Positions 32,902 through 41,709 of a stretch of DNA of 64,000 nt are shown here, piece by piece. The DNA is from Archangium gephyra (GTDB lineage Bacteria; Myxococcota; Myxococcia; Myxococcales; Myxococcaceae): assembly GCF_001027285.1 (NCBI RefSeq), contig NZ_CP011509.1:9820501-9884500 (forward strand), read 5' to 3'. The notes beneath the pieces are model-generated. The model was not told where the DNA came from. It saw only the letters and a program-made list of their open reading frames with translations, and did not search any database. Positions within the stretch are counted from its first letter, which is position 1, and every line of letters begins with the position of its first letter. A program made the translations under genes and the position numbers.

Positions 32902-33102
32902 CGGCCCGCTCCCCCCAGGGTCCTACAAGAGCCAGCGCACGAATCCCCGTGAGCCCTGACGGCCCCAGGGGGAAGGCGCGGCCCAGGGGTGCGGCCCCTG
33001 GCCGTGCCACCGCCCGGCGAGCGGTCACCCCGGCTGGATGGAGCCTCTCTCCAGGTGGAGTCGCGTCCACCGGGGAGGATGAAGTGGGCCCGGGGGGTGG
33101 AG

Positions 33103-36100
33103 ATGTTCGACGTATTCCTTTCCTATAACGGCCAGGACAAGGCGTCTGTCGAGGCCCTCGCCGAACGTCTGAGGACCGACGCCGGGCTGCGGCCCTTCCT
33201 GGACAAGTGGCAGCTGACGCCAGGAACGAGGTGGCAGCCCGCCCTGGAGGAGGCACTGGCGAAGAGCCAGGCAGTGGCCGTCTTCTTCGGTCCCTCGGGT
33301 GTCTCGCCCTGGCGCAACGAGGAGGTGCGGGTCGCGCTGGCGAACGCGGTGCGCACTCAGGACGATTACCGCGTCATCCCCGTGCTCCTCCCCGGTGCGA
33401 AGGCCGAGGAGATCACGGGCTTCCTGGCCCAGCGCACCTGGGTGGATTTCCGCGCGGGGCTGGATGATGGCGCCGCCTTCACGCGGCTGGTGGCGGGCAT
33501 CAAGGGCCACGCCCCCGAGAACGACACCTTCCAGCTCCCGGACGAGCCCGCCCCCTACCGGGGCCTGCTGCCCTTCAGCCAGCAGCACGCCCGGTTCTTC
33601 TTCGGCCGCGAAGCGGAAATCGAGACGGTGCTCGCCAGGCTGCGGCACTCCTCCTTCCTCGCGGTGGTGGGCGCCTCGGGGGTGGGCAAGTCCTCGCTGG
33701 TGCTCGGTGGGGTCCTCCCTCGCCTCGAGGCCCGCGGCCTGGGGGACGACGCACCCCTGCGCGCCCGGAGGATGACACCCGGAAGCCGTCCCCTCCGGGG
33801 GCTCGCGGACCAGCTCGCGACGCTGGTGCCTCCCGAGGCCCGCCTGGCCACCGCCGAGGCGCTCCGCGAGCAGCTCGCCTCGCGGAGCAATGCCCTCAGG
33901 ACGGCGGTGTCCACCCTGACCGCCGATCAACCGGGCACCTTCCTGCTCGTGGTGGATCAGCTCGAGGAGCTCTTCACCTATGCTCCAGACGGAAGCCTCT
34001 CGGAGTCCGCGACGGCCTTGCTCGCCAACCTGCGGGATGCCGTCGAGCACGGAGGCGGCGCCCTCCGGGTCATCGTCACCCTGCGCGCGGACTTCTTCGA
34101 GCGCTGCCTGCGCATCCCCACGCTGCGGGCCCTCCTGCAGGACCACGAGGTGTTGCTGGGAAACATGGGCCCGGAGGCGCTCCGGGACGCCATCGTCCGG
34201 CCCGCGCAGACGGTGGGGGCCTTCCTGGAGCGGGGGCTGGTGAGAGCCATCCTGAAGGACGTGTCCCAGGAGCCCGGCTCGCTGCCCCTGCTCGAGCACG
34301 CCCTCTATGAGCTGTGGCGGGCGCGCAATGGCGCCTGGTTGACGCTGTCCGCCTACGAGGCGAGTGGAGGCGTGGAAGGAGCGCTCCAGCGGCGCGCGCA
34401 GACCTGCTACGAGGCGCTGAGCGCTCCGCAGCGGGAGATAGCCAAGAGGCTCTTCCTGCGGCTGACGGCGCTGGGCGAGGGCACCCCGGATACGCGGCGG
34501 CGCATCCTCTCCTGCGAGCTGAACTTCCCCGGGATGGACTCCACCCAGGTCGAGCATGTCCTCCGGGTGCTGTCGGGACCCGGGGCCCGGCTCATCGTCG
34601 TCCACGAGAATTCCGTGGAGGTGGCACACGAGGTCCTCATCCAGACGTGGCCCACCCTGCGCGGGTGGCTGGACGAGAACCGCCGGGTGCTGAGCATCCA
34701 CCGGCGGCTGACGGAGGCCACCCACGAGTGGACGGAGCACCACCAGGACGCCAGCTACCTGTACACCGGCTCCCGCCTCCTGGAAGCCGAGGAGAGCTTC
34801 TTGGGGAAGCCCGGTCCCCTGAACGCCCGGGAGCGCGACTTCCTGGATGCGAGCGTGGAGCGCCGCGACGAGGAGAAGCGCGCGGAGGAGCGCCGCCGTC
34901 AGGCGGAGCTCGAACGGACCCAGGAGCTCGCCCGGGTGGCCGAGGCGGGGAGGCGCGCCGAGGCGGCACGGGCGCGGGTGGCCCGGAGGGCGACGCGGAG
35001 ACTGCGCGTCCTGGCCCTGGTGCTCCTGGTGGGCACGGCGGGCGTCGTCTCCTTCTGGGCGGAAGCGCGGCGGGAGCGGGATGTGGCCCTCTCGCGTGAG
35101 CTGACGGCCAGTGCCTTGCTGGAGCTGGAGGAGGACCCACAGCGCAGCCTGCTGCTCATCCAGCAGGCGTACCGCATCACCCCGACGGAGCACGTGGCGA
35201 AGGCGTTGTCCGCGTGGCAACTCGAGCCGGCCCTGCTGGTCGTGCGAGACACGGCCAACATCATCGGCCGGGTCGGGTTCCACCCCGATGGTTCACGAAT
35301 CATCACGTCCAATAGCGAGGGCCTGGCGCGCATCTGGGACGTGGCCTCCGGAAGGCCCCTGGTCACCTTGAAGGGACACACCGGCCCGGTGAGGAGCGCC
35401 CGGTTCGACTCCGCGGGCGCACGCGCCGCTACCGCCGGTCAGGATGGCCTGGCGCGTGTCTGGGATGTGGCCTCCGGCAAGCTCCTCGTCACCCTCTCGG
35501 GGCACACCGATGCGGTCTGGGATGCCCGGTTCAGCCCCGAGGGCTCGCGCCTCCTCACCTTGAGCCGTGACGGCACGGTGCGCACCTGGGATGCGGCCTC
35601 GGGCAGGCACCTCCTCACCCTGGTGAGGCGTCCCGAGCAGGTGGGTTTCGCCATGTTCAGCCCCGACAGCACGCGCATCGTCACGGCCGGCGGAGATGGC
35701 ACGATGCGCATCCGCGAGGTGGAATCCGGCGGACTCCTCGTCACCCTCACGGCACACAGCGGGGCGGTGCTCACGGCCCGGTTCAACCCGGAGGGCACGC
35801 GCATCGTCACCGCCGGTCTGGACGGCACGGCGCGCCTCTGGGACGCGGCCTCCGGCAGGCTCCTCGCCACCCTCTCGGGACACGCGGACGGAGTGCTGGG
35901 CGCCACCTTCAGCCCCGACGGTACGCGCATCGTCACCGCCAGTCTGGACGGCACGGCGCGCCTCTGGGACGCGGCCACGGGCAGGCTCCTCGCCACCCTC
36001 GTGGGGCACACCGGTCCCGTGGTGGATGCGGGTTTCCGCCCCGATGGCGCGCGCGTCGTCACCGCCAGCGAGGATGGCACGGCACGCCTCTGGGACGCGG

Positions 36101-37221
36101 CTTCCGGAGTGCTGCTCACCACCCTCTCGGGGCACACCAACACGGTGCTGGGGGCCTCCTTCGGCCCCGATGGCATGTCCGTCGTGAGCTTCAGCCGCGA
36201 CGGCACGGCACGCCTCTGGGATGCCTCTGGAAAGATCTCCACCACCCTGTCTGGCACCACGGTGGACTTCAGCGCCGAGGGCACGCGCGCCGTCACCGCC
36301 AGCGAGGATGGCACGGCACGCGTCTGGGAGACGGCCACGGGCAGGCTCCTCGTCACCCTCTCGGGACATACCGACGCCGTGCTGGGCGTGACCTTCAGTC
36401 CCGACGGGACGCGCATCGTCACCACCAGCAACGACGGCACGGCGCGCCTCTGGGACGCGGCCACGGGCAGGCTCCTCGTCACCCTCTCGGGGCACACCGG
36501 AAAGGTGTGGAGCGCCAACTTCAGCCCCGACGGAGCGCGCATCGCCACCGCCAGCACGGACGAGACGGCGCGCCTCTGGGACGCGGCCACGGGCAGGCTC
36601 CTCGTCACCCTCTCGGGACACAAGGCGGAGGTGTGGAGCGCCAGGTTCAGTCCCGACGGAGCGCGCGTCGCCACCGCCAGCATGGACGAGACGGCGCGCC
36701 TCTGGGACGCGGCCACGGGCAGGCTCCTCGTCACCCTCTCGGGGCACACCGCGCTGGTGGCGGATGCGAGCTTCAGTCCTGACGGCACGCGCATCGCCAC
36801 CGCCGGCATGGACGGGACGGCACGCCTCTGGGACGCGGCCTCCGGTCAGCTCCTCGTCACCCTCTCGGGGCACACCATCGGCCCGGTGGTGGAGGCGCGG
36901 TTCAGCGACGGCGGCACGCGCATCATCACCACCTACCGGGAAGACACCCCTTGCCTCTGGGATGCGGCCTCCGGTCAGCCCCTCGCCAGGCCCTTCGGGG
37001 AGGCCAGCCTGCTCCGCGGAGTCCGTCTCAGCACCGATGGCTCGCGCCTCTTCACCCCCAACGGCAATGGCACGATCCGCATCTGGACGCACCGGGTGTG
37101 GGAACCCCTCGAGGCCCAACTCTCCAACTGGAGCGCTGGGCGGGACCTGACCTGCGAGGAACGCGCGCTCTACCTCCACGAGAAGCGCAAATGCCCCCCC
37201 AGCGGAAGGACGAGCGAGTAG
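33103..37221 (+). CDS. TIR - nSTAND NTPase - transmembrane - WD40 repeat protein
   Basis: A 1372-aa NLR-like protein. Residues 1-135 are a TIR domain (MFDVFLSYNGQDKASVEAL; SPWRNEEVRVAL with candidate NADase Glu73/74). A novel-STAND NTPase follows, with Walker A GASGVGKSS (190-198) and Walker B FLLVVDQLEELF, and a helical winged region to about 560. A coiled coil leads to one hydrophobic segment (about 634-656), then 15 WD40 repeats (about 716-1345) and a short Cys-containing tail. The first-listed alternative start is ATG 33079. Bacterial TIR-STAND proteins act in antiphage or self-recognition responses by NAD depletion; that role here is inferred from architecture. Confidence 0.88.
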   Translation: MFDVFLSYNGQDKASVEALAERLRTDAGLRPFLDKWQLTPGTRWQPALEEALAKSQAVAVFFGPSGVSPWRNEEVRVALANAVRTQDDYRVIPVLLPGAKAEEITGFLAQRTWVDFRAGLDDGAAFTRLVAGIKGHAPENDTFQLPDEPAPYRGLLPFSQQHARFFFGREAEIETVLARLRHSSFLAVVGASGVGKSSLVLGGVLPRLEARGLGDDAPLRARRMTPGSRPLRGLADQLATLVPPEARLATAEALREQLASRSNALRTAVSTLTADQPGTFLLVVDQLEELFTYAPDGSLSESATALLANLRDAVEHGGGALRVIVTLRADFFERCLRIPTLRALLQDHEVLLGNMGPEALRDAIVRPAQTVGAFLERGLVRAILKDVSQEPGSLPLLEHALYELWRARNGAWLTLSAYEASGGVEGALQRRAQTCYEALSAPQREIAKRLFLRLTALGEGTPDTRRRILSCELNFPGMDSTQVEHVLRVLSGPGARLIVVHENSVEVAHEVLIQTWPTLRGWLDENRRVLSIHRRLTEATHEWTEHHQDASYLYTGSRLLEAEESFLGKPGPLNARERDFLDASVERRDEEKRAEERRRQAELERTQELARVAEAGRRAEAARARVARRATRRLRVLALVLLVGTAGVVSFWAEARRERDVALSRELTASALLELEEDPQRSLLLIQQAYRITPTEHVAKALSAWQLEPALLVVRDTANIIGRVGFHPDGSRIITSNSEGLARIWDVASGRPLVTLKGHTGPVRSARFDSAGARAATAGQDGLARVWDVASGKLLVTLSGHTDAVWDARFSPEGSRLLTLSRDGTVRTWDAASGRHLLTLVRRPEQVGFAMFSPDSTRIVTAGGDGTMRIREVESGGLLVTLTAHSGAVLTARFNPEGTRIVTAGLDGTARLWDAASGRLLATLSGHADGVLGATFSPDGTRIVTASLDGTARLWDAATGRLLATLVGHTGPVVDAGFRPDGARVVTASEDGTARLWDAASGVLLTTLSGHTNTVLGASFGPDGMSVVSFSRDGTARLWDASGKISTTLSGTTVDFSAEGTRAVTASEDGTARVWETATGRLLVTLSGHTDAVLGVTFSPDGTRIVTTSNDGTARLWDAATGRLLVTLSGHTGKVWSANFSPDGARIATASTDETARLWDAATGRLLVTLSGHKAEVWSARFSPDGARVATASMDETARLWDAATGRLLVTLSGHTALVADASFSPDGTRIATAGMDGTARLWDAASGQLLVTLSGHTIGPVVEARFSDGGTRIITTYREDTPCLWDAASGQPLARPFGEASLLRGVRLSTDGSRLFTPNGNGTIRIWTHRVWEPLEAQLSNWSAGRDLTCEERALYLHEKRKCPPSGRTSE
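35250..37110 (+). repeat. Array of 15 WD40 coding repeats, about 126 bp each
   Basis: The repeats end in GTARLWDAASG-like blade motifs. Units between about 36360 and 36850 share long near-identical DNA stretches such as CTCTGGGACGCGGCCACGGG and GGCTCCTCGTCACCCTCTCG. One unit (about 36235-36335) is shortened, missing the start of a blade. Fifteen units fit two propellers (7+8). Confidence 0.85.
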
Positions 37222-37245: not shown

Positions 37246-38742
37246 TCAGCGGATCGTGGATGGGGGCGGGTATTGCGGATCCGGCCCCGAAGGCGGCGGC
37301 TTCAACGACCGCTTGTGGCGTTCTGGCGCTCCAACGCCCCCCACGGCGCCGGTGTGGCCGGGCGCCGGGTGCGACTCCGCCCCGTGCCCCACATGCTTGC
37401 ACTCAGGGTCAGGCTTGAGACCGCGCTCGGCAATCGCCTTCAAGTCCGGCATCACGCCGATGGGCTCGCCGGTCGGGGAGGCCGAGGACGTTCCGAGGGA
37501 GGGATCGCTCAGGATGCAGCGAAGCCGCCAGGGGTCGTAGGGTTCGCCATACGTCACCACGGCCATCCCCTGTGTGGACAGCGCCACCCCGGCGACGATG
37601 GCCGAAGCGCTGGAGGTGCCACCGAAGGTGGAGGTGTAGCTGTGGAGCTCACTGGCATTGGTGTTGGTGGTGGCGGTCTCGACCTTCTCGCCCCAGCCGT
37701 AGCAGTCGATGCGGCTCCCGTAGCAGGAGGACACCAGACGGGCGTGTTTCTCGTCGGAGGATGCCGCGCCGACGATGATTGCCCCCGAGTCCCTGAACCC
37801 TGCCTTCGGACCGCCAGCTCGATTGAAGATCCGCCCGCCCAGGGGATCCTTCACCCCGGGGTCCTTCACGTTGTCCAGGTTGAAGTTCCCGTTGCCGCCG
37901 GCTTCCACCACCACGATCCCCAGGGCGGTCGCCTGGCGGATCACGTCGAAGACGGCAGGTTCGATCTCGACTGGAACCAGGTCGTAACCCCAGAGCTCCG
38001 TCTGCGCCTCCAGGAGGAGGACGTCGCCGTAGCCCATCACGAAGCTGGCATCCAGGATGGGTTGAGCAGTGCAGCCCCCACCGATGCGCCACTGGGAAAT
38101 GACGCGCACGGATACGAGCCCGGGAGTGATGCCAACACCGCCCACGGCGTTGTTCACGGAGGCCACTACACCCAGCACCGAGGTGCCGTGGTCGAAGTAG
38201 GCGGCGTTGATTCCGGAGATGAGCTTGATGCCATGGGCCACGAGGTCCTCGTGGCCCAATGCCCAACCCTGCTCCAGGTCCACGAAACCGAGTCCGGCCC
38301 CATCCCCCCCCTTCGTTGTCCAGGCGAACGAGGCATCGATCCCCATGGGCGCTGGACCCAGGTAGCCCTGGCTCTTCTTGGGTGGGTCACCCAAGGCATT
38401 CACCTGCGGGGGCTTGATGGGGCCGGGCTCCACGTAGGCCTTCTCCACGACGGCCTTCTCCCCCTCGGCGAGATGGTTGACCACCGCTTGCTGCGTCCCG
38501 TCAGCGGCAACCTCCAGGGCGAAGTATGAATTGAGGTTCACCGGCTCGTAGCTGGGATCCGTCGCTCTCGCTCGCCTCCTCAGGGAGCGGAGATCCTGCG
38601 GGGATTGGCGGAATAGTCTCGTCAAGCGGATGCCGTCGAATTGCCGGGCCAGACGGGACTCGAAGTCCTTGAGTATCTGGACCTGGCCAGTACCTATCTC
38701 ATCCTGGAACTTCACCACGACTCTGGGCGGACGAATCTGCAT
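37246..38742 (-). CDS. Subtilisin-like (S8) serine protease without signal peptide
   Basis: A 498-aa protease. The triad is Asp155 (LGFVDLEQGW), His185 (FDHGTSVLGVVAS) and Ser377 (GGTSSASAIVAG), with oxyanion Asn284 in EAGGNGN. The first about 110 residues (VVVKFQDEIG and a helical stretch) resemble an I9-like propeptide, but no secretion signal precedes them, so the enzyme may be cytosolic or use an unusual route. The C-terminus is a Pro/Gly/His-rich tail. It converges on the TIR-STAND gene with 24 bases between stops. Confidence 0.85.
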   Translation of the reverse strand: MQIRPPRVVVKFQDEIGTGQVQILKDFESRLARQFDGIRLTRLFRQSPQDLRSLRRRARATDPSYEPVNLNSYFALEVAADGTQQAVVNHLAEGEKAVVEKAYVEPGPIKPPQVNALGDPPKKSQGYLGPAPMGIDASFAWTTKGGDGAGLGFVDLEQGWALGHEDLVAHGIKLISGINAAYFDHGTSVLGVVASVNNAVGGVGITPGLVSVRVISQWRIGGGCTAQPILDASFVMGYGDVLLLEAQTELWGYDLVPVEIEPAVFDVIRQATALGIVVVEAGGNGNFNLDNVKDPGVKDPLGGRIFNRAGGPKAGFRDSGAIIVGAASSDEKHARLVSSCYGSRIDCYGWGEKVETATTNTNASELHSYTSTFGGTSSASAIVAGVALSTQGMAVVTYGEPYDPWRLRCILSDPSLGTSSASPTGEPIGVMPDLKAIAERGLKPDPECKHVGHGAESHPAPGHTGAVGGVGAPERHKRSLKPPPSGPDPQYPPPSTIR

Positions 38743-38982: not shown

Positions 38983-39618
38983 TCAGGAATCAGCGGGCCG
39001 CCAGGTGAGGAGATGCTCCGCGATCCATGGGGCAATCTCCCCAGCCCGGTCACGGGCGAACATATGGTCGCCGCCCGTGAGCACCCGCAGCCGGGCCCTG
39101 GGCAGCAGTCGCTCGAGCTGACGGCCCACCCCCACGGGGCTGATCGGATCGGCATCACCCCAGAGGAGCAACGTCGGGATGGAGAGACGATGAAGCTCCG
39201 CCGAGAGCTCCGTCCGCTCCGTGAGGATCCACTCCGAGGCGTTGGGGTACTCCGCGCGATAGGACCCGCGCCAATCCGCCGCGCCAGAGCTCGCCACATC
39301 GATGCCACCGGAGGTGGCCGTCAGGATCAGGTGGCTGATGCGGTCCGGATGGGCGAGCGCCAGCCGCACGGCGACGAGCCCCCCCATCGATTGCGCCACG
39401 ACCACACTCGGGCGCTCCAGGCGGCTCGCGGCATGTGCGACCGCATCGTCGAGGCCCTGGAGTGCCGGCTCATGCGGCTCGTGACCCAGACCCGGCCAGC
39501 TCAGGTAGGTCTTGCGCCAGCTCGCCGGCAGCACCGCTCCGAGCGGATGCCAGAAGGACGCGGCGCCACCGGCACCGGGCAGGAACAGGAGGTGGTGTGC
39601 CATGGTGACGGCGACCAT
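38983..39618 (-). CDS. Alpha/beta hydrolase
   Basis: A 211-aa alpha/beta-hydrolase. The oxyanion region reads LFLPGAGGAASFW, the nucleophile elbow is AQSMGG (Ser), the acid is Asp in LLWGDADPISP and the His is in GGDHMFARD. A second possible start is Met at 39603. It is small for the family, with a minimal cap. It follows the 594-aa gene by 33 bases on the same strand and is therefore probably the last gene of the peptide locus beginning at 41709, where it could trim or hydrolyse the product; this is inference. Confidence 0.85.
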   Translation of the reverse strand: MVAVTMAHHLLFLPGAGGAASFWHPLGAVLPASWRKTYLSWPGLGHEPHEPALQGLDDAVAHAASRLERPSVVVAQSMGGLVAVRLALAHPDRISHLILTATSGGIDVASSGAADWRGSYRAEYPNASEWILTERTELSAELHRLSIPTLLLWGDADPISPVGVGRQLERLLPRARLRVLTGGDHMFARDRAGEIAPWIAEHLLTWRPADS

Positions 39619-39651
39619 GGCACCGGCGATTGAAGTCCGCAGCCAGAATCC

Positions 39652-41436
39652 TCAAGAGCTGGCGAGACCACAGCGGGTGGCGTCCTCCGTGTTTTCAACG
39701 GTGATGCCCAGCTCCTCCCGGAGCACATCCAGCAAGTAGGGCCGCATGCGGGTGGTGCCGATGCGCAGGCGGTGACCGAGCGAGAGATCCGCACCGGAGA
39801 GTTTCCGCGCCGGGTGGGGACGCTGGAGCAACGCATTGACCTGGCGCTGAGTCCCTTCCAGGACGCGAAGTGCCGAGCGCTCGAGCGCCAGGAACTCCGC
39901 GACGGCGTCCGCCACGGCGTCGAGGACGTCTCCGCGGGCCCCGGAGGGAGCGCCCGCGCGCGAGCGCATCAACTCCCGGAGCCGCAGGCGGGCATTCCCA
40001 TCCACCTCGTCCCCCGCGGGGGTGAACGCGTCCCGCAGGTGCTGCGGCGCGCCCTCCCGGAAGCCCCTCCTGCCACGCTGGGCTCGCGCGTACATCTCGC
40101 TGAAGGCGGCCTCGGTCAAGGCTCGGGGGGTGGCGTGGTGCAATCCCGAGAGCTGCACCAGCTGCCAATCGCGCTCGACATGCGCGCGCAGCCGGCCCAG
40201 GACGCCACCCGGCTCCTCCTCCACCTCGAGCAGCGCCGTGTGAATCACATCGTAGGCGTGGCACATGCGGCTCCAGTGGGTGGACTGGAGAGAATAGAGT
40301 TGGAGCCCGAGCAGCCCGTAATCCATCGCCGCGGGGAGCTCCGCCTCCCACGCCGCCGGGGGGATGGGGGCACCCGTCACGGGCTTGCCCTCCAGCAACG
40401 TCGCGAAGAAGTCCTCCACCATGTGCGGAGGACCGGCGCAAACGCCGCGGGTCGAGAGATAGAGATTGGCCTGCTCGGTGACGCGGAGCAGCTCGGCCGC
40501 CGTGGTGGGCGTGTCGTACGGCACCGGGCCCTCCAGGAGCAGGAGCAGATAGGACGTCACCATCCGCACGCCATCCGTCACCCGGAACAGGGAGGACAGC
40601 ACCGGATCCAGCATGCCATTGGGGACGGGCGCATTCGCGCGCATCAGCAACAGGGACGGCAGGGCCAGCACCACATAGGACAGGGCATGGAGGTCCCCCA
40701 GCCGCCAGCGCCCGTCGGGGAGCAGGGGATGGTGGCGCAGAAACTCCTCGCGCACCGCGAGCACCGCGCGCAGCACGGGCTTCCAGTGCCGCGTCATCGA
40801 CTTGAGCGCCGTCAGGTTCATCGGCGCCTCCTCCCGATAGCGGCTGCCCGGGTAGGGGCACGTTCGCCGCTCCGTCGGCAACTTCATGCGCATGGCGTCG
40901 GGGAAGACGCTCATCTCCCCCACATGGCGTCCCTCCGCGTCGAGCGCCGGGTGGGCGAGGCGATACGCCGGGAGCACCGTTTCGAGGAAGCCCAACTCCA
41001 GCGGTTGCCCCACCAGCCGCTCCATGACCCGGGGACAGTCCGGGTTCCACCACAAGGGCTCGCTGGGGGCTGCCCGCCTGGCCTCGGACTCGAGGAATCT
41101 GCGCAGGAGCTGGCCCTCGGATGACGGCTTCGGGGCCTCGCGCGAGAGGAGCTCCTCGGCCAACAACGCCTCGAGCAACTCCCTCACACGCTCCCAGGGA
41201 TAGGGCTCCCCCACGCTCCACGCGGTGGCGCTGCCCGCCATGAATTGATCGTGCTCGAGCAGCGCCTCTCCAAAGGAGATCAGGTCCGGCTCATCGAGCG
41301 TGAGTTCCTTGACGCCGAAGTAGATGTGCAACTCCCTGGTGCCCTCGGGAGTGGTCACGTACTGGCGCGTGGAGCGCCGCCGCATGGGCACGTACAGCGT
41401 CTCATGGGGCTCAACCGGCACTGTTTCCTGACTCAT
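39652..41436 (-). CDS. Large protein of unknown family, possible peptide-modification enzyme
   Basis: A 594-aa soluble protein with no signal peptide and no family I can name. The first about 100 residues (RQYVTTPEGTRELHIYFGVK, then ISFGEALLEHDQFM and WERVRELLEALLAEELLSR) have the strand-strand-helix plus winged-helix rhythm of RiPP recognition elements (PqqD-like). The rest is helical, with conserved-looking CPYPGSRY, DLHALSYVVLALPSL, TEQANLYLSTRG and LSGLHHATPRALTEAAF. AGGAG sits 7 bases before ATG 41436. A 22-residue peptide gene lies 204 bases upstream in the same direction. The RRE reading is tentative. Confidence 0.6.
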   Translation of the reverse strand: MSQETVPVEPHETLYVPMRRRSTRQYVTTPEGTRELHIYFGVKELTLDEPDLISFGEALLEHDQFMAGSATAWSVGEPYPWERVRELLEALLAEELLSREAPKPSSEGQLLRRFLESEARRAAPSEPLWWNPDCPRVMERLVGQPLELGFLETVLPAYRLAHPALDAEGRHVGEMSVFPDAMRMKLPTERRTCPYPGSRYREEAPMNLTALKSMTRHWKPVLRAVLAVREEFLRHHPLLPDGRWRLGDLHALSYVVLALPSLLLMRANAPVPNGMLDPVLSSLFRVTDGVRMVTSYLLLLLEGPVPYDTPTTAAELLRVTEQANLYLSTRGVCAGPPHMVEDFFATLLEGKPVTGAPIPPAAWEAELPAAMDYGLLGLQLYSLQSTHWSRMCHAYDVIHTALLEVEEEPGGVLGRLRAHVERDWQLVQLSGLHHATPRALTEAAFSEMYARAQRGRRGFREGAPQHLRDAFTPAGDEVDGNARLRLRELMRSRAGAPSGARGDVLDAVADAVAEFLALERSALRVLEGTQRQVNALLQRPHPARKLSGADLSLGHRLRIGTTRMRPYLLDVLREELGITVENTEDATRCGLASS

Positions 41437-41585
41437 GCGATGGCTCCTGGGAGCTGGCCCGGGAGGTTCATGCGCGGAGGGGCTGCTCCAGACGAGGGTG
41501 GTTCTCCCTGGGACTGAGCACGGGGCGCGGCCTTGTGATTCGCGTGACGTCCAGGAGTCTTGCTGGGAGGACCCTCATGCGAACA

Positions 41586-41601
41586 GCCGCCAGCGGGCGG
41601 C
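41586..41601 (-). promoter_or_regulatory. Stem-loop between peptide gene and 594-aa gene
   Basis: GCCGCC and GGCGGC arms with a 4-base loop, 39 bases after the peptide stop and without a U-tract. This placement between a short precursor gene and its larger neighbour is typical of partial terminators or processing hairpins that set a high precursor-to-enzyme ratio. Function is inferred. Confidence 0.4.
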
Positions 41602-41640
41602 GGACCACCCACTGGCGACTCGACTCAACCGCGTCTTCTT

Positions 41641-41709
41641 CTACAGGTAGGAGCAGCGGCCCCCACCCAGACTGATGGCACCCGCACGAATGTTCGTCTT
41701 GATCTTCAT
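41641..41709 (-). CDS. 22-residue precursor-like peptide (putative RiPP)
   Basis: A short frame encoding a 22-aa peptide that begins MKIKTNIRAG and ends GGGRCSYL. An AGAGGA element lies 5 bases before the ATG, a strong site for so small a frame. The basic, Asn/Thr-containing start followed by Ala-Gly resembles 'KTNxRAG/KTNVKAG' leaders of peptide families I recall in cyanobacteria and myxobacteria, and the Gly-rich tail with one Cys, Ser and Tyr looks like a core. It is followed by the 594-aa protein and the hydrolase on the same strand. The peptide could still be a chance frame; conservation would decide. Confidence 0.5.
   Translation of the reverse strand: MKIKTNIRAGAISLGGGRCSYL

What the first reader, a model, noticed from the sequence alone, without database searches (positions are those of the whole stretch)
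38983..41709. Cryptic RiPP-like locus: 22-residue peptide, 594-aa unknown protein, alpha/beta hydrolase
A 22-aa frame (41641-41709) with a well-placed AGAGGA site starts MKIKTNIRAG and ends GGGRCSYL, like a leader-core precursor. On the same strand, 204 bases on and past a 6-bp stem-loop, comes a 594-aa protein with no recognisable family. Its first about 100 residues have a PqqD/RRE-like secondary-structure rhythm. A minimal alpha/beta hydrolase follows. None of the known RiPP enzyme families (LanM, YcaO, rSAM, ATP-grasp) is present, so if real this may be a new class.
Basis: partly seen in the sequence, partly recalled or inferred. Interest (0 to 1): 0.72.

Follow-up and report, generated by a model that had tools for sequence, protein, structure and literature searches.

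The report
Myxobacterial mini-peptides with unknown enzyme
Myxobacteria carry a family of very short peptide genes (14 to 44 residues) that share one ten-residue start and, in the genomes searched, occur exactly where a protein of no known family occurs, which looks like a new way of making small exported peptides.

Summary
The 22-residue frame belongs to a family of short peptides that share a 10-residue start, MK[IVL][KQ]xx[VI][RK][GAS]G, before a variable tail. The neighbouring 594-aa protein has no Pfam, NCBIfam or PHROGs match and no credible PDB sequence match. In 145 genomes of the order, two DNA patterns for the start hit exactly the 30 genomes with a full-length relative of the 594-aa protein, and none of the other 115. 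Residue 6 of the start follows the protein's tree in all 21 close homologues that have a peptide. Two of four close clades, and the distant branch, sit beside a C39-peptidase ABC exporter (C39 enzymes typically cut after Gly-Gly). In 23 of the 24 distant-branch genomes the precursor is only 14-15 residues, MKIK[IL]HVRGGPKAR(S/A). Relatives lacking the first ~160 residues lie in nonribosomal-peptide clusters. Best reading: a new RiPP class with a leader to Gly10, a core mostly holding Cys, an enzyme of a new family, and C39 cleavage and export (in trans for this locus). No modification is shown, the chemistry is unknown, and the N-terminal RRE fold is unconfirmed. The alpha/beta hydrolase is not part of the conserved unit.

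The parts
41641..41709 (-). 22-aa precursor peptide MKIKTNIRAGAISLGGGRCSYL
   Evidence: Reading frame with AGAGGA site. Only copy of the motif in the 64-kb window; one of 62 distinct family members.
41680..41709 (-). leader part, codons 1-10 (MKIKTNIRAG); proposed cleavage after Gly10
   Evidence: Positions 1, 2 and 10 invariant in 62 of 62 distinct peptides; position 9 G/A/S, position 8 R/K. The cleavage site is inferred from the C39 peptidase of the family's exporter.
41641..41679 (-). core part, codons 11-22 and stop (AISLGGGRCSYL), with a single Cys
   Evidence: 51 of 62 distinct peptides have Cys after position 10. That this is the product is inference.
41585..41620 (-). 16-bp RNA hairpin between precursor and enzyme gene
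   Evidence: -42.1 kcal/mol for 86 nt, z -3.75, 0 of 200 shuffles as good; 16 pairs counted. The 80 nt after the peptide have z below -2 in 26 of 41 peptides examined (30 single-base shuffles each).
39652..41436 (-). 594-aa protein of a new family; proposed core-modifying enzyme
   Evidence: No Pfam, NCBIfam, PHROGs or PADLOC match. 48 full-length homologues, itself included, in 30 of 145 genomes.
41122..41436 (-). N-terminal region (residues 1-105), proposed leader-binding domain
   Evidence: Predicted bbb-aaa order for residues 10-105, mean pLDDT 66.5. Absent from the homologues in nonribosomal-peptide loci. RRE fold not confirmed.
39847..40941 (-). conserved domain, residues 166-530, shared with nonribosomal-peptide cluster homologues
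   Evidence: 23 invariant residues in 41 aligned sequences including the Burkholderia one.
40840..40860 (-). motif C193-P-Y-P-G-S-R199
   Evidence: C193, G197, S198 and R199 invariant in 41 sequences. Role unknown.
40429..40443 (-). motif V332-C-A-G-P336
   Evidence: All five residues invariant in 41 sequences. Role unknown.

Best explanation
The locus encodes a minimal RiPP-type system of a new class. A very short precursor has a 10-residue leader ending in Gly-Gly or Ala-Gly and a variable core, usually with a Cys. The 594-aa protein holds the leader (most likely with its N-terminal ~110 residues) and modifies the core with its 166-530 domain. The modified peptide is then cut after Gly10 and exported by a C39-peptidase ABC transporter, its partner ABC protein and a HlyD adaptor (plus an outer-membrane channel in the distant branch). 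At the window's locus the exporter is not local; it is probably the one at the fourth paralogue's locus, about 2 Mb away in the same genome. Shown: the family, its exact co-occurrence, leader-enzyme co-variation, exporter linkage, the C39 domain and its catalytic residues. Inferred: that the protein is an enzyme, what it does to the core, that its N-terminus binds the leader, that cleavage is at Gly10, and that export works in trans.
For: Two leader patterns hit exactly the 30 of 145 genomes with full-length homologues and 0 of 115 others; reversed-pattern controls 0. Leader residue 6 changes the minimum 4 times (5 states) on the tree of the 21 close homologues with a peptide, 0 of 1000 shuffles as few. 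C39-type ABC, partner ABC and HlyD lie together within about 6 kb in 14 of 24 close loci (T/A clade 5 of 5, K clade 9 of 9, N clade 0 of 5, R clade 0 of 5); both ABC genes lie by 13 of 13 distant loci examined (first seen). All 8 genomes with an exporter-less N or R clade member also hold a T/A or K member. The own genome has one close exporter copy (72%; next best 34% over the ATPase part) for four enzymes. Peptidase_C39 E 2e-20 and 1e-14 in the two tested; Q, C, H and D of the site visible in six sequences. Tandem precursors: up to four in a row. The 166-530 domain also occurs beside Cupin_8 and NRPS genes, which suggests an enzyme of natural-product making.
Against: No modification is shown and no catalytic residue is assigned. 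No fold or profile links the N-terminal domain to RREs, and no column of residues 1-110 separates the leader classes. Three close homologues (L053, L054, L057) have no recognisable precursor nearby. Eleven of 62 distinct cores lack Cys, some being only four residues, so no single target residue fits all. The window's own locus has no exporter within about 6 kb, and its leader ends Ala-Gly, not among the endings listed as typical for C39 enzymes.
Confidence: 0.72

Rival explanations
1. The peptides are exported double-glycine peptides (bacteriocins or pheromones) that are never modified; the 594-aa protein is a dedicated chaperone, immunity protein or receptor that recognises them.
For: C39 exporters carry bacteriocins and pheromones (passages of PMC10986499). 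No known modifying enzyme matches the protein. The 14-aa precursor is nearly invariant over 23 genomes, as a signal would be.
Against: The same domain, without the N-terminal part, sits in nonribosomal-peptide clusters beside Cupin_8 proteins, where a peptide chaperone has no obvious use. The 23 invariant residues, two Cys and five Arg among them, look like an active site (inference).
Confidence: 0.17
2. In the distant branch the invariant PKAR peptide is the source of a small cofactor or metallophore (as PqqA gives PQQ; recalled) rather than a peptide product; the close branch diversified from it.
For: All 27 sites of the second pattern encode MKIK[IL]HVRGGPKAR with at most one extra residue, and an APH-type kinase gene follows the enzyme in 13 of 13 loci examined.
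Against: The exporter operon of C39-ABC, ABC, HlyD and outer-membrane channel points outward; a cofactor would stay inside. The G010 relative has four different cores.
Confidence: 0.07
3. The frames are upstream regulatory peptides (attenuator ORFs), not precursors.
For: A strong hairpin follows the window peptide and many others (26 of 41 with z below -2).
Against: Peptides lie upstream, downstream, on the opposite strand, in tandem arrays and far from any homologue, and their sequence, not only their position, follows the enzyme tree.
Confidence: 0.02

Closest known systems
RiPPs exported by C39-peptidase ABC transporters (class II lanthipeptides, NHLP and Nif11 types; recalled, not fetched)
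   Same: Gly-Gly-ending leader, variable Cys-containing core, tandem precursors, C39 ABC exporter with HlyD.
   Different: Leader of only 10 residues; enzyme of no known family; the exporter proteins tested score far below the NHLM models' cut-offs (190.8 of 853.3 bits at best).
Myxobacterial biarylitides (myxarylin; search listing of PMC12951456 and PMC8708641)
   Same: Myxobacterial, extremely short precursor.
   Different: By their abstracts those use a cytochrome P450 for cross-linking; no P450 was found among the 18 neighbour proteins scanned (a part of all neighbours).
Prochlorosin-type substrate-in-trans systems (recalled)
   Same: Several precursors scattered in a genome, away from the enzyme (13 of 15 first-pattern sites in G120).
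   Different: The enzyme is not a lanthipeptide synthetase; whether the scattered peptides are substrates is untested.
HetC, a peptidase-based exporter in Nostoc (passages of PMC10986499)
   Same: C39 ABC exporter in a multicellular bacterium, suspected of exporting regulatory peptides.
   Different: No counterpart of the 594-aa protein is mentioned in the passages seen; its substrate is unidentified.

Membership tests
RiPP | Gene-encoded precursor with conserved leader and variable core | tested here: met
   62 distinct peptides, positions 1-10 conserved, tails of 4-34 residues
RiPP | Precursor paired with a dedicated maturation protein | tested here: met
   Same 30 of 145 genomes; leader residue 6 tracks the protein's clade. 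This shows the pairing; that the partner is a maturation enzyme is not shown.
RiPP | Post-translational modification of the core | not testable with these tools
   Needs mass spectrometry
RiPP | Leader removal and export | tested here: inconclusive
   ABC exporter pair beside 27 of 37 full-length homologue loci examined (14 of 24 close, 13 of 13 distant); C39 domain by Pfam in 2 of 2 tested. Cleavage itself not tested.
RRE / PqqD (PF05402) for residues 1-105 | Three strands followed by three helices, winged-helix fold | tested here: inconclusive
   Predicted order fits (pLDDT 66.5). No Foldseek match at E 0.001 or better; one leader-bound lasso-peptide protein (TbiB1, 5v1u) at rank 40, E 1.6; no RRE among the 50 VIA rows shown.
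RRE / PqqD (PF05402) for residues 1-105 | Sequence-profile similarity to PqqD | tested here: inconclusive
   No PqqD match in Pfam; hhalign against 18 PqqD sequences from the order: probability 5.5%, only one helix aligned.
NHLP bacteriocin exporter (TIGR03796/03797/03794) | Score above the curated cut-offs | tested here: not met
   Best 190.8 of 853.3 bits, 174.6 of 709.4 and 42.6 of 156.2
Indoleamine 2,3-dioxygenase (PF01231) for residues 160-560 | Profile similarity and proximal heme His (recalled) | tested here: not met
   hhalign probability 0.2%, no better than six shuffles (one IDO sequence only); no His among the 23 invariant residues
Lanthipeptide, YcaO, radical-SAM or ATP-grasp RiPP classes | Signature enzyme paired with the precursor | tested here: inconclusive
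   The 594-aa protein and 24 relatives match none; none among the window's neighbours scanned. Neighbours at other loci were scanned only in part: a Radical_SAM pair (PF04055) is near L056, with the same clusters in L060 and L061, that is 3 of 24 close loci.

The most novel reading that the evidence does not exclude
A new RiPP class whose single, structurally unknown enzyme family is shared between ribosomal (with an N-terminal leader-binding domain) and nonribosomal (without it) peptide pathways. Its smallest members make an exported product of four residues (from PKAR) out of a 14-residue precursor kept nearly unchanged across 23 genomes of the family, probably a conserved signal of these social bacteria.
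Probability: 0.45. Interest if true: 0.9.

Novelty: new variant of a known kind. Interest (0 to 1): 0.8.

Why it matters
RiPP classes are found mostly through known enzyme families; this one has none, so an ordinary search for known enzymes would pass it over. It gives a defined substrate for a protein family of unknown chemistry, one with a sister branch in nonribosomal-peptide clusters, so the same reaction may be testable in two systems. The nearly invariant 14-residue precursor in 23 genomes is a candidate for an unknown extracellular factor of multicellular bacteria. In ten searches of 5.39 million open papers I saw no description of it: five for peptide strings found no paper, one on the Cupin_8/NRPS context found none, and of four topic searches I saw listings, two of them capped (20 of 88, 15 of 17, all).

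Tried and rejected
Structure of the whole 594-aa protein: AlphaFold2 with the five sequences allowed gave mean pLDDT 52.5, and its Foldseek search had no match below E 0.17; not used. The N-terminal domain alone (pLDDT 66.5): best Foldseek E 0.14 to a PX domain, VIA Z at most 4.0 to unrelated folds; no conclusion. Profile of 25 homologues against PDB sequences: best E 0.031 to apolipoprotein, a helix-composition match. Relation to indoleamine dioxygenase, a lead from eye only: not supported. A C-x5-R phosphatase-like reading of C193-R199 was considered from memory and dropped without a test. Alpha/beta hydrolase, subtilase and beta-lactamase-like neighbour as parts of the system: not conserved at the other loci. 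Viral contigs: no homologue. Plasmids: one record only, Burkholderia arboris.

Columns that determine the leader class: only position 318 separates the classes cleanly, and none lies in residues 1-110. This gives no support to the N-terminal domain as the recognising part.

Rows dropped before counts: for the 62-peptide table I required ATG, an SD-like string and a length of at most 60 residues, and dropped frames that began MRV (one seen, in L135; filter). Two of 20 PqqD sequences came out empty (L182, L185). Of the 24 distant-branch homologues, 13 were examined with flanks. The 48 homologues leave out the three homologues without the N-terminal part, the N-domain-only match of G138 and, a weak match in G050 whose frame I did not resolve. 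My simple gene caller missed some ABC genes under opposite-strand frames; one search recounted them by tblastn. Both DNA patterns were written after seeing peptides at some loci (the first, the second), so their fit at those loci is not independent; their absence from the 115 other genomes is.
Full report
What is there. On the minus strand of the window lie a 22-codon frame (41641-41709), a 16-bp RNA hairpin (41585-41620), a 594-codon frame (39652-41436) and, 33 bases further, a 211-codon alpha/beta hydrolase. The 594-aa protein matches no Pfam or NCBIfam model at E 10, no PHROGs or PADLOC model at E 0.001, and a profile of 25 homologues finds no credible PDB sequence (best E 0.031). No Rfam family reaches its gathering score in the stretch.

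The protein family. The window's own genome (12.49 Mb, one contig) has four copies; the other three are 66-71% identical to the window's. Among 145 genomes of the order, 32 have a match; 30 hold full-length relatives, 48 in all. They fall into a close branch (24 proteins, 55-77% identity to the window's, itself apart) and a distant branch (24 proteins, 35-38%). A search of 195 genomes of the phylum with the profile added one genome with a weak match. Three more relatives in the order, and one on a Burkholderia arboris plasmid, lack the first ~160 residues.

The peptide family. Upstream or downstream of close homologues lie short frames that begin MK[IVL][KQ][TS]x[VI]R[GAS]G. Examples are the window's MKIKTNIRAG-AISLGGGRCSYL, MKVKTNIRGG-LRPVQPVEIDFIPYIPPPSMGGGCRGYP, and four in a row of the type MKIKTKVRGG-PRGCGPGGISIYYEL. 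Of 24 close homologues, 20 have one within about 0.6 kb, one (L051) at 7.4 kb, and three (L053, L054, L057, close relatives of each other) none in the stretches fetched. In G010, the most divergent distant-branch genome, four mini-frames precede the exporter operon: MKIQTNVKAG-LTKIR, MKIQTNVRAG-VLVKGR, MKIQTNVKAG-MKIR, MKIQTNVRAG-LIAVKGR. In the other 23 distant-branch genomes a frame on the strand opposite to the homologue, at the operon's 5' end, encodes MKIK[IL]HVRGG-PKAR; 4 of the 27 copies carry one more residue.

Statistics. The first pattern hit 59 sites in 12 genomes and the second 27 sites in 23 genomes; the reversed patterns gave 0 in both. The union is 30 genomes, exactly the 30 with full-length homologues, and none of the other 115 (one in about 1e31 if the sets were unrelated, not allowing for kinship of the genomes). 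Expected chance hits per 12.49 Mb are 0.0024 and 0.00002. Of the 59 first-pattern sites, 31 lie within 1 kb and 43 within 10 kb of a homologue; 16 are farther away (2 in the own genome, 1 in G043, 13 in G120). All 27 second-pattern sites lie 7.7-9.1 kb from a homologue, at the far end of its operon. The patterns were written after seeing some of these loci, so only the genome-wide part is an independent test.

Leader and core. In 62 distinct peptides, positions 1, 2 and 10 are invariant, position 8 is R (60) or K (2), position 9 G (48), A (13) or S (1), and position 11 is P in 44. Total length is 14 to 44; 51 have a Cys after position 10. On the enzyme tree (IQ-TREE) leader residue 6 sorts the 21 close homologues that have a peptide into N, T/A, R and K clades, with the minimum 4 changes for 5 states, against a mean of 12.5 in 1000 shuffles and none below 9. 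Four genomes (G098, G099, G102, G105) hold both an R-type and a K-type pair, and a fifth (G120) likewise, each enzyme with its own kind of precursor nearby (at 7.4 kb for one, L051). This is strong evidence that the leader is read by, or evolves with, the protein.

Export. By tblastn, a C39-type ABC transporter, a second ABC protein and a HlyD adaptor lie together within about 6 kb of the homologue in the T/A clade (5 of 5) and the K clade (9 of 9), and in neither the N clade (0 of 5) nor the R clade (0 of 5). In the distant branch, both ABC genes, an outer-membrane channel and an APH-type kinase are present in 13 of 13 loci examined, and HlyD in 12 of 13 (the stretch of the thirteenth, L071, ends before the place). 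The first ABC protein carries Peptidase_C39 in the two tested and the second does not in the two tested; Q, C, H and D of the active site are visible in six. All 8 genomes with N or R members also hold a T/A or K member. In the window's genome the only close copy of the exporter is at the fourth paralogue, about 2 Mb away. [quoted passage not shown] Cleavage after Gly10 is therefore the natural inference; the window's own leader ends Ala-Gly, which is not one of the endings listed there.

The protein's likely role. The domain spanning residues 166-530 is also found without the N-terminal part: in three Myxococcota loci (L192, L193, L194) and on the Burkholderia plasmid (L195). Pfam shows Cupin_8 (JmjC-like) proteins in the three loci run (L192, L193, L195) and condensation, AMP-binding and carrier domains in the same three; L194 looks the same by reading. 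23 residues, including C193, G197-S198-R199, R229, R266, V332-C-A-G-P336 and E519-R520, are invariant in 41 sequences. I infer an enzyme that acts on peptidyl or aminoacyl substrates, to which the ribosomal branch added an N-terminal leader-reading region. AlphaFold2 gives that region three strands and three helices in RRE order, but fold and profile searches do not confirm it.

What is not part of it. The alpha/beta hydrolase has one weak fragment match among 39 other loci; the subtilase and the beta-lactamase-like neighbour have none. The other window genes scanned within about 8-14 kb (TonB-type receptor, STAND/WD40 protein, histidine kinase, adenylosuccinate lyase, kinase and others) contain no known RiPP enzyme.

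Known or not. Ten searches of the paper library listed nothing that describes this family; two listings were capped (20 of 88, 15 of 17). The Archangium lanthipeptide of PMC9576775 (passages) has lanthionines and is unrelated by description. The RRE survey PMC12710340 (passages) says that 21% of the retrieved RRE proteins lacked any Pfam match, so this protein could be among its unnamed entries; I could not check. A subscription paper could also hold it.

Verdict. I rate it a probable new RiPP class, filed as a new variant of a known kind because modification is not shown.

Noticed in passing
window 32989-37221 (+) and 37246-38742 (-): A 1410-aa protein with SEFIR/TIR-like N-terminus (PADLOC bSEFIR, E 1.5e-8), nSTAND1 NTPase and WD40 repeats, convergent with a subtilase (PF00082, E 1.9e-7): possibly a conflict or defence pair.
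   Followed up: partly
L125 8016-8197 (own genome C1:9744015 and 9744107) and L126 8245-8304: Two precursor-like peptides far from any homologue, MKVKTHIRGG-FNPQPDPPG and MKVKTHIRGG-LNPQPEPPGRLGLVRLPRP, and a near-identical one in G043: Pro-rich, no Cys.
   Followed up: partly
L132-L141 (G120): Thirteen precursor-like peptides scattered over the G120 genome more than 10 kb from a homologue, three of them with three Cys in the core.
   Followed up: partly
L078 3020-4426 (-) (G138): A 469-aa Cys-rich protein with no Pfam match carries a stretch like the N-terminal domain of this family at its C-terminal end: the domain seems mobile.
   Followed up: partly
L192, L193, L194, L195: Relatives without the N-terminal part sit with Cupin_8 proteins in nonribosomal-peptide clusters in Myxococcota and Burkholderia (L194 by reading only).
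   Followed up: partly
L092 15262-16275 and the same place in the 13 distant-branch loci examined: An APH-type kinase (PF01636, E 2.9e-23 in the one tested) follows the distant-branch enzyme gene in 13 of 13: perhaps immunity or a further modification.
   Followed up: no
L056 2987-5830, and clusters 18 and 19 in L060, L061: A pair of Radical_SAM proteins (PF04055, E 7e-11 and 9e-16, tested in L056) near three R-clade homologues.
   Followed up: partly
L052 6077-7738, L051 2576-4051 and the same clusters in other K-clade loci: Di-haem cytochrome c peroxidase (MauG-like, PF03150) and a di-haem oxidoreductase (PF06537) beside K-clade homologues (clusters 7 and 6, 5 and 7 loci); may be mere gene order of related species.
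   Followed up: no
L053, L054, L057: Three sister homologues kept with their exporter but without any recognisable precursor nearby.
   Followed up: partly
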